Part shown: piece by piece, positions 2,762 through 20,978 of the stretch | How the letters are laid out: the number at the start of each line of letters is the position of its first letter | Numbering within the stretch: the first letter of the stretch is position 1 | From: a virus | IMG/VR virus record: IMGVR_UViG_3300022925_000171 | Span: 1-24,216 of that record | Reading direction: 5' to 3' (one strand) | Length of the DNA stretch: 24,216 nt | Notes under the pieces: generated by a model | What the model saw: the letters and a program-made list of their open reading frames with translations, nothing else | What the model was told of the DNA's origin: nothing | Databases searched by the model: none | Translations under genes and position numbers: made by a program

Positions 2762-4582
2762 TTATTTTAATCCTGGTCCAAAACCTGACTTATTTGTTAT
2801 TGGGTTACCAGATACTTCTGTTTTTTTCTTATAAATAAAGTTTTTATATGAAGTACTAAATCCACCTTCTACACCTGGTTTTGTTTTTGTATCTTGCTTA
2901 GTCCAAGTACCGATGTAAGGTACGAATGGATTTTCTTGTGTATACCCATCGTTTTTTAATACAATCGGTCCGTCTACATAAACTTGAGTTCCTTTGTCAT
3001 TATAACCATAAAAGTATAACCCATCATCTAAAATTGCAATACCAAATGTAGCATATGTAGTTGGGTTAGGGAATGTACTATACATTTGCTCCCATTTTGC
3101 TTCTAATTTATTATATCCATTTGTTCCAGATACTTCAGTATTCCAACTCATCTGACTTGATGGGTCTGATGGATTACCATTAGGTAAATTTGCTTGTGGA
3201 CCTGAAGGTTGCCATTTAGTTTCCATAATGTCAATCTCTCTTCCGTATTGAGAGTATTGTTGTGAACCACCTTTTGGACTGTTGTCCAAATAATATTTAT
3301 TATCCCACATCATAACTTTTCTTTCTGCCAAATAAAAGGTTTCACAAAATAAACTATCAGGATAAGTACCTCCACCATTGGAACCTATTTTAATATCTAT
3401 TTGCCATACTCCATCCATCGCAACTCCATAAGCGCTGTCATCAGTTTTCATATCTGAATCTAAAACATTAACAGGGTACGCTCTACTACCATAATTGTAT
3501 CCGTAAACTGAATCACCTGTTTGTTTTGTACTCTGAACTGTTGAAGTGCCGTCAGATGTCCATCTTAATGTATCATCAAAATTATAGTCTTGTGTCCAAT
3601 ATGAACCTGGAGTACTAAAAGGTTTTTTACCTGTTTGACCACCTGTCCAATCAATTAGTCCTGTAGTGTATGGTGGTGGATAAGAAGATTTACCATACGA
3701 AACATCATATGAATTATCACCTACTTTAGTAAAAGTTAAAACACTATCAGGTTTATTATTACCATCCATTGATACTGGTGGGTCTAAAGGAGCTCCACCA
3801 ACAGGGTCAGTAAAATGTACTGTAGTAGTAGTAAGGTAAGTAGTCCCGTTTAATATATCTAAAACTAAGTACGCCCAATCACCTCCATTTACATTATTCC
3901 AAGTACCATTTGGTGCCAATTCAGTACCTACTGCTGGTGAAAAGTCTTGATGTCCCGATTGTGGATTACCTTGAGATACTCTAAGAGTACCCTGTGAAGA
4001 AGTATTTTTCCATGTTTGATTAGACATAGTTGATAAGTTACTTTCAGGACATATACATGGGTCTTTAAAAGGACATGGACAACCTTCTAAACCTACAGGT
4101 GTGACTTTACCTGTGGTAGCATCCACACTTACAAAACCTTTACTAGTTGTAAAAATGTATTGTGCGAATTCAAAATCTGGTCCTAATGGTCTTCTTAAAA
4201 CTACCACAGACCAATCCGCCTCACCTTCAACTCCAGTACCATAACCTGCTTCTAATAATAATTCTTCAGCCTCCTCTAATGTGAGTTTAACAGGTAAATT
4301 AATAACCTCATCCTCTAAAAAGGGTTCATTGATAACTATAGATTTGGTTAATCCGTTAGAAGTACATAATACTTCAATAGTTGTATTATTTTTACCAGCA
4401 AAAACTGATTTTACTCCATTTAATTCTTTAGTTGCGCTAGATTCATAAAAAAGTGCGGTCTTATCAATACCTAAAGCTACTTCTTCAGTCTTCTCAACCA
4501 TTTCATTAAATGTGAGTTTTTCCGTGTTGGAACAACCCATTAAGAGTAATCCCGTAATTAATGTTAATAATGTTTTTTTCAT
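2762..4582 (-). CDS. Large lipoprotein with PepSY-like region and GH16-like EIDIxE motif
   Basis: 606 residues. The signal ends in LLLMGC (Cys17), a lipoprotein signal. Residues about 98-163 resemble a PepSY-type domain: a helix rich in Glu (LTLEEAEELL), then a strand ending FVSVDATTGKVTPV. A Cys cluster follows (CPCPFKDPCIC, 168-178). The C-terminal about 400 residues are rich in Gly, Thr, Trp and Tyr and look like beta-sandwich sequence. They contain REIDIMETKW, where Glu449, Asp451 and Glu454 fit the catalytic EIDxxE pattern of GH16 glucanases. A GH16-like polysaccharide hydrolase on the cell surface is the best guess; a non-enzymatic beta-sandwich remains possible. It lies downstream of another lipoprotein gene and ends in a terminator. 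Confidence 0.65.
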   Translation of the reverse strand: MKKTLLTLITGLLLMGCSNTEKLTFNEMVEKTEEVALGIDKTALFYESSATKELNGVKSVFAGKNNTTIEVLCTSNGLTKSIVINEPFLEDEVINLPVKLTLEEAEELLLEAGYGTGVEGEADWSVVVLRRPLGPDFEFAQYIFTTSKGFVSVDATTGKVTPVGLEGCPCPFKDPCICPESNLSTMSNQTWKNTSSQGTLRVSQGNPQSGHQDFSPAVGTELAPNGTWNNVNGGDWAYLVLDILNGTTYLTTTTVHFTDPVGGAPLDPPVSMDGNNKPDSVLTFTKVGDNSYDVSYGKSSYPPPYTTGLIDWTGGQTGKKPFSTPGSYWTQDYNFDDTLRWTSDGTSTVQSTKQTGDSVYGYNYGSRAYPVNVLDSDMKTDDSAYGVAMDGVWQIDIKIGSNGGGTYPDSLFCETFYLAERKVMMWDNKYYLDNSPKGGSQQYSQYGREIDIMETKWQPSGPQANLPNGNPSDPSSQMSWNTEVSGTNGYNKLEAKWEQMYSTFPNPTTYATFGIAILDDGLYFYGYNDKGTQVYVDGPIVLKNDGYTQENPFVPYIGTWTKQDTKTKPGVEGGFSTSYKNFIYKKKTEVSGNPITNKSGFGPGLK

Positions 4583-13631: not shown

Positions 13632-13664
13632 AAAAAAAAACCTCAGTTGGTTAGAACTGAGGTT
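13632..13664 (-). terminator. Intrinsic terminator of the large structured RNA
   Basis: On the minus strand a perfect 10-bp stem AACCTCAGTT/AACTGAGGTT (13664-13655 with 13648-13639), loop of 6, is followed by at least 9 U. It lies where the structured region ends and before the next promoter. Confidence 0.9.
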
Positions 13665-14554
13665 AAGGAAGATATATATAAAGTATAGAACGCTGAGATT
13701 ACACGTTTATGTGACCTGTCTTTAGTGAGATTACCCTATGTCGGTTGCTCACTTATCCACTATCGTTGCCGAGAGTATCAAGTCAGTGTCGGTTATTTGA
13801 GTGAACCACTCTTCTCGTTAACAACTACTCAACTACTACTTTACTCTGTTAAACCTTGCGAGTTTACGAAGGGATGGCCGTCCCACCAGGTATTTGGTAA
13901 TCGACATCAGAAGACTTGCGGTCTTACCAATGACTTCGTTAGTCTATGACTCGAAGTGTTAGACACCTTTCGTTGTCAACGCCCGAAGAACTTTTGCTTT
14001 CTAATTGTTAGTTAGTATAGCAACTGTGGGATAATGAAAGATGTGCTTCGGGAGAAGGTTCGTTTCTTTTGGAAACAAAATGCTTCACACCTCTCTGTAA
14101 GTCTGTCAACTTACGGTACTTCAGGAATACGTTAACTTATCGTCTCGGAATCCCTTCGTACTGGTACCCAGCCCTACAACATCTGACAGGATGTGTCGAA
14201 CCGTCACCTGTAGCTTTTCCTATTGATATCACTATCTCAACTCTGATATTCCACGGATTCAGAGTAATCTCGTCCCTTTAGCAGTTGCCCTTAGGGTCTT
14301 GATTGTAGCCACTTTGTTTAGTTGTCAGCCTCACGACTGCGGACATTCACGGTGTACTATTCCCGTTTCAATCCCTTTAGTCCCATTACTGGGGTTATCT
14401 AACGACGCTAAACCGCCGTCAAATGTCTTATTTTAACCGTTGTAGAAAAAAGGGGTTAATCTTTTTGTATTTCTTTCACAAACTGTGATGGTCAAATTAG
14501 ACACTTATTAATATTTTCAAAGAACGTCTTCAGTACTCTTACTGATTTGTTTGA

Positions 14555-14585
14555 CAAACTTACAACAAAATTTTCAATCTGTCAA
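14555..14585 (-). promoter_or_regulatory. Second candidate promoter of the large RNA
   Basis: On the minus strand, TTG (14585-14583), 20 bases, then TAAGTTTG (14562-14555). If used, the RNA would start near 14548 and be about 915 bases long. Confidence 0.5.
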
Positions 14586-14660
14586 ATACTTTTTAAAAAA
14601 AATTTCTGAAATAATCAGTAGGGTAAAATATAAATATGCCCGTTTTCTTTAAAAGTTATA

Positions 14661-14690
14661 CAAAGATACAAAAAAATTACTCTCAGACAA
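14661..14690 (-). promoter_or_regulatory. Main candidate promoter of the large RNA
   Basis: On the minus strand, TTG (14690-14688), exactly 19 bases, then TATCTTTG (14668-14661), a full match to the Bacteroidota housekeeping promoter. Transcription would start near 14654. It sits 25 bases after the stop of the gene at 14715. Confidence 0.75.
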
Positions 14691-14714
14691 GCTCTTTGAC
14701 CAATTTTTTTGAAT

Positions 14715-15719: not shown

Positions 15720-17975
15720 TTAGTGTTTCTTGAATTCTGTTGACGTTTCAATACCAACAATTCCGTCAATCAAATTTAAACCATTATCTTTTTGGAACTT
15801 CTTAACCGCTCTCATTGTATAAGGACCATAGATTCCATCAATCCCAGCATCCCCTAAATCGTAACCTTCTTTATCTAAAATTGTTTGGATTTCTTCAACT
15901 CCTTTACCTTGTGAACCCATTGATATTAATTCAGAGTTATCACCGTTGTTAACAATATCCGTAATACTTAAATCTTCACGTGCAATTTTTCCCTCAACTT
16001 TATCAACAACTTGTCCTGGTTCAATAACAATTAAATCTCCCCCATCAAGACTATCTTTTAAAAATGGCCATGGGTCAATAGTTCCTCTTTTATACCCACC
16101 TCTTTTCTCATACATCGAAAAGTGTAAGTGTGGATGGGTTCCTTTAGCGTTTCCTGTATCACCAACTGTACCTATGAATGTGCCTTTTTTAATATCGTCA
16201 CCTTTACTTATATTATCAGATACTTGGTCTAAGTGTGCATAATAATAAACTATACCATTTAATAATACACTAACTGTCTTACCACCAGTAGTTCTATCTT
16301 TTCTTCTAACTTTAATCACTTCTCCATCCGTAGCTGAAATAATTGGAGTACCCTTAGGTGCAAATATATCAATTCCTAAATGTCCTCCTCTGTGTTGATG
16401 TTTAGCGTCACCCGCCCCATAATCACTATTATGAATCGCCTCGTCTTTATCTAATACTTTTTTCTTACCTCTACCTAATCCTGAGGAATCATAACCAACA
16501 TTGAATTCTTCATTACCAATTGGAAATATAAAACCTATTGCTTCATTTAAAACCGATTCATTTAAATTTTTAGATTCATTAATCTTTTCTTTAAGTTTTC
16601 TAACAAATTCATTTTGAATCATTTTAGTAAACTTAACATAAGGTGAGTCACCTTTATCTTTATTGTATTTATATTTACCTTCAGGTTTTCTCTTACCTCT
16701 ACCGAAATAATTAAGTGCCGATATATTAGTAATACATTTATGTCCTCCTGAGTTTGCTTGAATCATTTCCCACGCAGGTACACCTAATTTGTCTAATATT
16801 GCCCACTGGTCTTCCGTTAATTGAGTTGAAGGTGTATCCATGATGTCTTTTAACTTTTCCATATATTCATCACCACCATCAATAGAACGTACTTTATCAC
16901 CATAAAATGCTTCTAAATCTGCATTTGTAAAACCAACTGATTCATCACCAAATTGTTTGTTACCTTCAGATATCCACTTTATTGTAGATAATGGAATTAT
17001 TTTATCCTTTAATTGACTCTCCCATTTACTTAACACTTCTTGAGCAATCTCACCTAAATTAACACCTTTTAGTTCTCTTTCTTTTTTAAATGGGTTACAA
17101 GATGCTTGTACTAATCCCATAGGCCAAGCAATAACTAAGAAATCAGCGTCAGGGTTATTTTCAAATGGTGTGTATCTATCATAAGAACCTGGTTTAAACA
17201 TTGAACCTCCACCATATTGAACTATAATATTATCGTCCACATATACTTTTTCACTTTCTTTTTGTTTTTGAATGTAATCTTTTTGATTTAAATCCATTTC
17301 ATCAGGAAGGGCATATCCTCTCTCCGCCGCGATTCTATTAATATTTTGAAATATATTTAACAACGATGGGTTAGAAGTCATAACTAATTCCTCCATAAAT
17401 CCAGGTTTATTCTTATAGGCTAACATTAATTTGTTAGTCGCCAATCCTAAAGCTGTTTTATTTTTTTGTAATGATTCGTCTTTTTGAAGTTTAAAAACAA
17501 AATTCATAATATCTTTAGGTTTTAATCCGTACTTCGCAAAATCTGCAGAATCAACTGTAGATATTAACCTTATATCATCAGAAGTAAAAATATCTTTTGG
17601 AGACATTATCTGCGATAAGGTTTCAACATTAGACCTTGATGACCTGAAAGAAGTTGAAGTCTCATCTTCAACACCTGTTTGACTATCATGGTGGTCCGTG
17701 TGGACAACAAACATTGGTTTACCGTGGGCGAAGTCAACTAAAACCGGCATAGTATCTCCTTGAGCGTCTTGTTTTTTAACAGTGAACTCTTTATCACCAT
17801 ACTGTATTATCTCAGAATCAACAACTTTAATTCCGTTATCTTCTAAATAATTTTTCATAGCTAAGGCAGTTGTAACACCGTCTAAATCTTGGTGGAAATA
17901 AATTTTAGCCTTTTTATATCTGTCGGCTAACGCCTTCATATTCCTTAGTCCCGATTCTTTAATTAATTTTTTCAT
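15720..17975 (-). CDS. DHH/DHHA1 phosphoesterase fused to M23 endopeptidase and peptidoglycan-binding domain
   Basis: 751 residues in one uninterrupted frame. Residues about 20-420 are a DHH-family phosphoesterase (RecJ/NrnA type): HQDLDG (28-33), LVDFAHG with Asp81, VHTDHHDS with the DHH at 94-96, VDSAD with Asp142, and a late SGGHKC (409-414) like the DHHA1 GGGH. Residues about 515-640 are an M23 peptidase with zinc ligands in GGHLGID (His532, Asp536) and HPHLHF (His616, His618). Residues about 685-750 are a PG_binding_1-like domain (GIDGIYGPYTMRAVKKFQ). The linker has INES, LNES and VLNE|A (465-479), and the N-terminus LIKE|S; both fit T4-type prohead protease sites. The start overlaps the lysozyme stop by 4 bases. 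A cytoplasmic nuclease joined to a wall hydrolase is odd unless the protein is cleaved or carried in the virion. Confidence 0.9.
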   Translation of the reverse strand: MKKLIKESGLRNMKALADRYKKAKIYFHQDLDGVTTALAMKNYLEDNGIKVVDSEIIQYGDKEFTVKKQDAQGDTMPVLVDFAHGKPMFVVHTDHHDSQTGVEDETSTSFRSSRSNVETLSQIMSPKDIFTSDDIRLISTVDSADFAKYGLKPKDIMNFVFKLQKDESLQKNKTALGLATNKLMLAYKNKPGFMEELVMTSNPSLLNIFQNINRIAAERGYALPDEMDLNQKDYIQKQKESEKVYVDDNIIVQYGGGSMFKPGSYDRYTPFENNPDADFLVIAWPMGLVQASCNPFKKERELKGVNLGEIAQEVLSKWESQLKDKIIPLSTIKWISEGNKQFGDESVGFTNADLEAFYGDKVRSIDGGDEYMEKLKDIMDTPSTQLTEDQWAILDKLGVPAWEMIQANSGGHKCITNISALNYFGRGKRKPEGKYKYNKDKGDSPYVKFTKMIQNEFVRKLKEKINESKNLNESVLNEAIGFIFPIGNEEFNVGYDSSGLGRGKKKVLDKDEAIHNSDYGAGDAKHQHRGGHLGIDIFAPKGTPIISATDGEVIKVRRKDRTTGGKTVSVLLNGIVYYYAHLDQVSDNISKGDDIKKGTFIGTVGDTGNAKGTHPHLHFSMYEKRGGYKRGTIDPWPFLKDSLDGGDLIVIEPGQVVDKVEGKIAREDLSITDIVNNGDNSELISMGSQGKGVEEIQTILDKEGYDLGDAGIDGIYGPYTMRAVKKFQKDNGLNLIDGIVGIETSTEFKKH

Positions 17976-20045: not shown

Positions 20046-20978
20046 TTAATAATTAATTTTCCATTTATCGTAAGGTATCATACTATAAGGGTGTCTTTCG
20101 AAAAAACTTTCATGTATAAAAGTATATTCATTTTCTTGTTTTTTATCAAGGTATGCACCCCAAAATGATAAAGTTGAATTAGATAGAATATGTTTATCAC
20201 ACATACTCATCATATGAACCGCAATATACGGGTCTTCGTCAATATAAACAAATTTTTCTTTGGGAAATCCTAATTTATTTACAAATGATTTGGCTGAATT
20301 TAGGTTATCAGAAAATACAAGTACTTTATGTCCATCACCTTCTTCTTTTAAAATTTTACTTACCCATTCATCTGGAATTAATTTAATATCAAAAAAATTA
20401 TCTTGTCTTCCTCCACCCATTCTCAAATGTAAAGAAATACTTTTATCAAATAAGTTACCATAGTTATATTCAATATAATCACTAATATTTTTATCGGGTG
20501 TAAATAATTCTAAAATATAATCTCTTTCATGATGCCAATATAATTTATTGAAAAAATATCCCTGAAATAGATAAGGTGGTTTAACTTTTTGTTTTAAATC
20601 GTAATAAACTCCACCTTCTCCAGTATCGATGTCCCACGCTAAACTTTGGTCGAACCACCATTGAAATGCATTAGGTCGACTATCGAACCAAGGTATATTA
20701 GGATATACATCACCAAAAGAAATATGTGGGTCTTTAAGTATGTGTCCTCCCCATGGGTCAAAGTGTATATTTCTACCGTTTCTATTGAGATGTTTATTAA
20801 ATTTAGAACTTTCGGATTGATGAGTTGTCCAATACCCAACTAAGGGGTCATAACCCGTTTCTTTTGCGTAAACCATTAGTGTAGCTGTTTGGAACATCAT
20901 ATTACCTAATCCTCCAGCTAATACAGTGGATATGGTATTGTTAGTAACATTTACGTCTTTTGGATTTTGTAAACTCAT
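20046..20978 (-). CDS. GT11-family glycosyltransferase (fucosyltransferase-like)
   Basis: 310 residues. GGLGNMMFQ (22-30) is the GDP-sugar binding start of GT11 alpha-1,2-fucosyltransferases; HLRMGGG (184-190) corresponds to the HxRRGD motif, here altered; VLVFSDN (219-225) and SNSTLSFWGAYL (266-277) complete the family pattern. GT11 enzymes move fucose from GDP-fucose to a galactose-type acceptor. The altered HxRRGD motif leaves the donor open. No sugar-nucleotide synthesis genes are nearby, so the donor would come from the host. Likely modifies virion proteins, phage DNA or host glycans. Confidence 0.87.
   Translation of the reverse strand: MSLQNPKDVNVTNNTISTVLAGGLGNMMFQTATLMVYAKETGYDPLVGYWTTHQSESSKFNKHLNRNGRNIHFDPWGGHILKDPHISFGDVYPNIPWFDSRPNAFQWWFDQSLAWDIDTGEGGVYYDLKQKVKPPYLFQGYFFNKLYWHHERDYILELFTPDKNISDYIEYNYGNLFDKSISLHLRMGGGRQDNFFDIKLIPDEWVSKILKEEGDGHKVLVFSDNLNSAKSFVNKLGFPKEKFVYIDEDPYIAVHMMSMCDKHILSNSTLSFWGAYLDKKQENEYTFIHESFFERHPYSMIPYDKWKINY

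What the first reader, a model, noticed from the sequence alone, without database searches (positions are those of the whole stretch)
13632..14654. Giant structured non-coding RNA of unknown family in a phage genome
About 1 kb lacks protein genes, has higher GC than the genome, and contains many nested complementary segments by eye, including two stems that abut (14281-14340 and 14342-14427) and could stack, and a long arm (13982-14052) with a second stem inside. It has its own host-type promoters and a terminator. Few bacterial RNAs of this size exist apart from rRNA; those in phages (GOLLD, ROOL) are recently shown to form large RNA-only assemblies. This may be a new class or a distant member.
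Basis: partly seen in the sequence, partly recalled or inferred. Interest (0 to 1): 0.92.

Follow-up and report, generated by a model that had tools for sequence, protein, structure and literature searches.

The report
GOLLD RNA with rRNA-type boxA leader
The stretch encodes GOLLD, a known giant phage RNA that builds hollow cages, read from the opposite strand; the new part is that in this and nearly all related phages of Bacteroidota its transcript begins with what looks like the signal the host uses to transcribe its ribosomal RNA without stopping.

Summary
In detail: a conserved, non-coding, highly structured ~1 kb transcription unit with promoters and terminator, all on the MINUS strand. 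The family is not unknown: window 14095-13690 matches Rfam GOLLD (RF02032) over the whole model, 301.6 bits. Rfam holds only the 3' domain; the 5' domain (14418-14096) is defined here from 16 relatives (98.1% of cells paired, 78 pairs changed on both sides, 0/500 shuffles as good). It is shorter than in a second set of Bacteroidota-phage GOLLDs and lacks their GAAA-loop arm, but Acinetobacter GOLLDs are about as short, so this is variation within the family. New here: the leader carries GTTCTTTGAAAATATT (14525-14510), identical to the boxA-like element upstream of 16S rRNA in Bacteroidia. 94 of 99 non-redundant GOLLD leaders carry GTTCTTTRA, against 2.2% of random windows; in the window's own phage the motif also heads the tRNA array and a tmRNA. 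Best reading: a GOLLD cage RNA whose phage borrows host rRNA antitermination for its stable RNAs. Transcription, cage formation and NusB binding are untested.

The parts
14661..14691 (-). upstream promoter P1, CTTGTC...TATCTTTG (Bacteroidota housekeeping type)
   Evidence: conserved at this place in nearly all of 18 relatives; coordinates; function inferred
14615..14637 (-). conserved ATATTTATATTTTACCCTACTGA between P1 and P2, role unknown
14555..14586 (-). downstream promoter P2, TTTG-N20-TAAGTTTG; start of transcription inferred ~14548
   Evidence: both boxes and spacing conserved in most relatives; coordinates; function inferred
14510..14525 (-). boxA-like antitermination element GTTCTTTGAAAATATT
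   Evidence: GTTCTT invariant in all 18 relatives; identical to 16S rRNA leaders of four Bacteroidia genomes; 94 of 99 GOLLD leaders have GTTCTTTRA
14096..14418 (-). GOLLD 5' (cap) domain, short form; starts with hairpin CGGCG-GUUUAG-CGUCG
   Evidence: covariation in 16-17 relatives; start motif shared with the second GOLLD set
14408..14413 (-). hairpin loop GUUUAG, complementary to CUAAAC at 14321-14316 (loop-strand pairing, within or between molecules)
   Evidence: invariant in this set; covaries in the second set, 100% paired
14316..14321 (-). partner strand CUAAAC of the loop pairing
13690..14095 (-). GOLLD 3' (ring) domain, Rfam RF02032 positions 1-416
   Evidence: cmscan 301.6 bits, E 9.2e-86, gathering 150
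13871..13884 (-). hairpin GGGA-CGGCCA-UCCC with invariant central GC in the loop; candidate for loop L21a, the self-pairing half-shell bridge B8
   Evidence: alignment A1; identification with L21a inferred from the text of PMC12286853
13632..13664 (-). intrinsic terminator, 10-bp stem and T run
   Evidence: stem covaries in relatives (helix 39)

Best explanation
The minus strand of 14691-13632 encodes a GOLLD RNA (core 14418-13690, ~730 nt) of a large Bacteroidota phage. Two host-type promoters start it; a boxA-like element in the leader recruits the host's rRNA antitermination machinery (NusB/S10 and partners), so that polymerase runs through this long untranslated, structured RNA without Rho termination; an intrinsic terminator ends it. 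The 3' domain then folds as in other GOLLDs; with the short 5' domain it is expected to assemble into a closed multimeric cage. Shown here: family membership of the 3' domain, conserved fold of both domains, non-coding nature, conserved promoters and terminator, presence and conservation of the boxA-like element, its identity with host 16S leaders, and its presence before the same phage's tRNA array and tmRNA. Inferred: transcription, Nus binding, cage formation and its size. What the cage does for the phage is unknown for all GOLLDs; the leader shared with tRNA and tmRNA suggests that it belongs with the translation-related stable RNAs of the phage.
For: RF02032 full-length hit, 301.6 bits. 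55 contigs with the 5'-domain 22-mer, all GOLLD-like around it. Covariation: 78 pairs, 0/500 shuffles. No coding signature. Terminator. Promoters and leader motif conserved. Motif exact in 8 of 11 neutrally chosen Bacteroidia genomes, 75-138 nt upstream of 16S, one more with one mismatch. 94/99 GOLLD leaders against 2.2% of random windows. In three phages intergenic motif sites lie at GOLLD, tRNA arrays and tmRNA; reversed-motif control 0 intergenic. Same phage as the window: 99.97% identity to a 169-kb contig.
Against: No transcript or protein-binding data. GOLLD loci of three Acinetobacter phages show no boxA within the ~1 kb seen upstream, so the element is not part of GOLLD function in general. 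The 99 leaders are non-redundant but related. 2 of the 11 neutral 16S leaders lack the motif. In G199 the tRNA array has no such motif in the 400 nt before it.
Confidence: 0.8

Rival explanations
1. GOLLD RNA, but GTTCTTTGA is not an antitermination site: it is a processing or protein-binding site of another kind shared by rRNA, tRNA, tmRNA and GOLLD precursors (for example an RNase or chaperone site).
For: No binding data; the motif sits 16 nt or less before tmRNA 5' ends and inside a tRNA array, which would also suit a processing signal. In E. coli the rRNA antitermination complex is also thought to aid folding of nascent rRNA (PMC10250234).
Against: Position just after the promoter in GOLLD leaders (median 27 nt after the -7 box), before 16S in the host, and likeness to the boxA core are those of boxA.
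Confidence: 0.17
2. Short-cap GOLLD that does not close into the published D7 14-mer but forms another oligomer or an open ring.
For: 5' domain about 70-90 nt shorter than in the second set, and 0 of 10 have the CCGAAAGG arm found in 63 of 69 there; in env-38 the 5' domains make the cap (PMC12286853).
Against: The 3' domain, which holds the half-shell contacts, is intact; Acinetobacter GOLLDs are also short.
Confidence: 0.25
3. A new class of giant phage RNA, only superficially like GOLLD.
For: The 5' half is outside Rfam's model and the region has no blastn match in INPHARED phages.
Against: 3' domain at twice the gathering score over the full model; the 5' start hairpin, loop pairing and several motifs are shared with the second GOLLD set.
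Confidence: 0.02
4. Chance fold or decayed coding sequence.
For: None of weight.
Confidence: 0.005

Closest known systems
GOLLD RNA, Rfam RF02032 (env-38 structure, Kretsch et al. 2025, PMC12286853)
   Same: 3' domain over the full model; two-domain layout with variable linker; phage-encoded; candidate self-pairing loop retained
   Different: 5' domain short (323 nt here against residues 1-420 in env-38), without the GAAA-loop arm; not next to tRNAs; leader with a boxA-like element
GOLLDs of other Bacteroidota phages (second set, e.g. L003, L014, L016, L021)
   Same: start hairpin, loop pairing, 3' domain, promoter plus boxA-like leader
   Different: 5' domain ~410-445 nt with CCGAAAGG arm; tRNAs within a few kb in 28 of 60
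GOLLD of Acinetobacter phages Herod, Ab15, vB_AciJM_313
   Same: family hit 207-225 bits; short 5' domain (~355 nt to the CAAAAG loop in the two measured)
   Different: inside tRNA arrays; no boxA-like motif seen nearby
ROOL RNA
   Same: works like it: giant phage RNA cage of unknown function
   Different: no Rfam match here; different sequence and fold
boxA of bacterial rRNA operons
   Same: promoter, short spacer, GTTCTTTGA core, long untranslated RNA
   Different: heads a phage RNA; binding not tested

Membership tests
GOLLD (RF02032) | match of the conserved 3' domain above gathering score | tested here: met
   301.6 bits against 150, positions 1-416
GOLLD (RF02032) | conserved secondary structure with covariation | tested here: met
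GOLLD (RF02032) | separate, less conserved 5' domain of several hundred nt | tested here: met
   323 nt, covarying; shorter than in the second set
GOLLD (RF02032) | variable linker near the start of the 3' domain | tested here: met
   the most variable, gap-rich stretch of the alignment, columns ~420-480
GOLLD (RF02032) | phage location, often by tRNAs | tested here: met
   phage contig; tRNA array lies elsewhere in the same phage; no tRNA in the window
GOLLD (RF02032) | conserved GAAA loop L11a (a 5'-domain trait, not part of the Rfam definition) | tested here: not met
   CCGAAAGG in 0 of 10 of this set, 63 of 69 of the second set; equating that arm with L11a is inferred
GOLLD (RF02032) | self-pairing loop L21a with GC/CG centre | tested here: inconclusive
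   loop with invariant GC at a plausible place; numbering not mapped onto the structure
GOLLD (RF02032) | assembly into a 14-mer cage | not testable with these tools
   needs biochemistry
ROOL / OLE / group I / group II introns | Rfam match above gathering score | tested here: not met
   GOLLD is the only match in the window
boxA antitermination element | same sequence at the corresponding place in host rRNA leaders | tested here: met
boxA antitermination element | NusB-S10 binding and anti-Rho activity | not testable with these tools
   needs biochemistry

The most novel reading that the evidence does not exclude
Large Bacteroidota phages run a stable-RNA regulon: GOLLD, tRNA arrays and a phage tmRNA carry the host's rRNA boxA, so the phage diverts the rRNA antitermination machinery to build RNA cages and translation RNAs. 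GOLLD would thereby belong functionally with the translation-takeover RNAs.
Probability: 0.6. Interest if true: 0.68.

Novelty: new member of a known kind. Interest (0 to 1): 0.5.

Why it matters
GOLLD cages have an atomic structure but no known function, and little is known about how they are made. A host rRNA antitermination signal on nearly every Bacteroidota-phage GOLLD would explain how such a long untranslated RNA is transcribed in full, links it to the phage's tRNAs and tmRNA, and gives a point mutation by which GOLLD output could be lowered in an otherwise intact phage, which makes the function question testable. The short 5' domain gives a natural variant for asking what sets cage size.

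Tried and rejected
A late-type TATAAATA promoter on the plus strand (14629): no more such sites than shuffles give. blastn of the region against INPHARED phages: none. The 5'-domain 22-mer in GTDB genomes: none. GOLLD model over 148 Bacteroidota and 119 Lactobacillales genomes: none, but with strict filters and no positive control, so uninformative about absence. Larger searches, and one for Mycobacteriales, gave no answer. RNAalifold first paired the start region in other ways; replaced by the local hairpin plus loop pairing, which covaries in the second set. Claim that the short 5' domain is unique to this set: dropped, since Acinetobacter GOLLDs are about as short. A family-wide boxA claim: dropped. 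Literature: no held paper has both GOLLD and boxA.

Full report
What is there. The Rfam scan of the whole window gives one match: GOLLD, RF02032, at 14095-13690 on the minus strand, 301.6 bits against a gathering score of 150, all 416 model positions. The window is a 24,216-base virus record; it agrees at 99.95-99.99% with several contigs including one of 169 kb, so it is part of a large phage. Its ThyA has its best relatives in two 635-642 kb metagenomic phages and Flavobacterium phage immuto, and the N-terminal part of the 15720-17975 protein in the same two huge phages. With promoter type and leader this points to a Bacteroidota, probably flavobacterial, host; that is inference.

Extent. 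Relatives at 83% identity (L009, L012) align from about 14691 to past the terminator. A 22-mer of the 5' domain brought in 55 contigs, and around it the sequence is GOLLD-like as far as the contig reaches. Eighteen non-redundant sequences show, in order: promoter P1 (14691-14661), a conserved ATATTTATAT.TTACCCTACTGA, promoter P2 (14586-14555), an invariant GTTCTT within GTTCTTTGAAAATATT (14525-14510), a variable leader, the 5' domain from 14418, the linker, the 3' domain, and the terminator (coordinates; terminator).

Structure and coding. On 16 sequences the consensus structure with the loop pairing has 227 pairs, 98.1% of cells paired, 78 pairs with changes on both sides; none of 500 shuffles reaches any of the five measures, and slid versions pair 35-42%. 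The structure was derived from the same alignment, so the slid control leans in its favour; the shuffles and the independent Rfam match do not depend on that. The 5' domain alone has dozens of compensated pairs. The plus-strand ORFs are broken in relatives and no frame stays open.

The 5' domain. A second set of GOLLDs (85 non-redundant leaders; 30 aligned) has a 5' domain that begins with the same kind of hairpin and the same kind of loop pairing: loop GUGUA, GCCUA or GUAUA with its exact complement ~100 nt on, compensating at two positions in many sequences and at 100% pairing; here it is GUUUAG with CUAAAC, different letters, same place. The distance from domain start to the UUCAAAAG loop of the 3' domain is ~345 nt here and mostly 411-445 in the second set, and the arm with CCGAAAGG is absent in 10 of 10 here and present in 63 of 69 there. 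In env-38 the 5' residues 1-420 form the cap and the GAAA loop L11a points to the inner circle (PMC12286853); equating the arm with L11a is inference. Acinetobacter GOLLDs are also short, so this is variation inside the family.

The leader motif. GTTCTTTGA looks like boxA. A scan of GTDB contigs for GTTCTTTGAMATATT hit some 16S leaders and several contig ends, where rRNA often breaks assembly, besides many chance matches. A neutral sample, chosen by taxonomy and not by the motif, gave 11 Bacteroidia genomes with a readable 16S leader: 8 have GTTCTTTGA exactly, 75-138 nt before 16S, one more has one mismatch, two have none; four are identical to the window over 16 nt. The loci, several with variants such as GTTCATTAA, come from genomes picked through the motif elsewhere and are not counted. 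Among 99 non-redundant GOLLD leaders 94 have GTTCTTTRA within 150 nt of the domain start against 107 of 4873 random windows of the same contigs, and 81 of the 94 have a Bacteroidota-type promoter within 150 nt before it (11% of random windows). In three phage contigs the intergenic sites lie mostly at GOLLD, at or in tRNA arrays, and within 16 nt of a tmRNA, with no intergenic site for the reversed motif; a few other intergenic sites remain unassigned and one tRNA array lacks the motif at its head. Across the set, 26 further sites precede tRNAs, against none for the reversed motif. Acinetobacter GOLLDs show none.

How it most likely works. Promoters recognised by the host polymerase, then boxA, then ~0.8 kb of untranslated RNA: the layout of an rRNA operon. 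Untranslated RNA of this length is exposed to Rho; in E. coli boxA binds NusB-S10, makes polymerase Rho-resistant, and the complex may help nascent rRNA to fold (PMC10250234). The same would serve GOLLD. Cage assembly is taken over from the published structure. Steps shown and steps inferred are separated in the best explanation. No held paper names GOLLD with boxA; most subscription literature is not in the library.

Verdict. Known family, new member, ordinary as a family assignment; the boxA-like leader is the part worth following.

Noticed in passing
G206:150206-150589 (L369:10206-10589 -), G199:234463-234852 (L382:14463-14852 +), G198:71764-72157 (L389:11764-12157 +): Phage-encoded tmRNA in the window's own phage and two relatives, each with a boxA-like site within 16 nt upstream; in G199 ARAGORN reads tag GETFAKLQAVGLLRTEEVAVA.
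   Followed up: yes
L056:11394-12178: Apparent recombinant GOLLD: L046-like up to a point matching window 14269, L028-like from 14158 on, one clean switch late in the 5' domain. May be natural recombination or an assembly chimera.
   Followed up: partly
window 14615-14637: ATATTTATATTTTACCCTACTGA between the two promoters is about as conserved as the promoters; role unknown.
   Followed up: no
window 15720-17975: 751-aa protein joining a DHH-like N-terminal part with an M23 peptidase and a peptidoglycan-binding domain; in 635-642 kb phages only residues 6-466 match.
   Followed up: partly
window 2762-4582: 606-aa lipoprotein-like protein with an EIDIME motif seen by eye as in GH16 glycosidases, but no significant Pfam or PHROG match.
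   Followed up: partly
window 20046-20978 and 695-1150: Glycosyltransferase family 11-like gene and a dTDP-4-dehydrorhamnose epimerase-like gene: sugar metabolism genes on a phage.
   Followed up: no
second-set GOLLD loci (e.g. L003, L016, L021): GOLLD lies within a few kb of tRNA genes in 28 of 60 second-set contigs but in none of the 5 window-type contigs that could be checked.
   Followed up: partly
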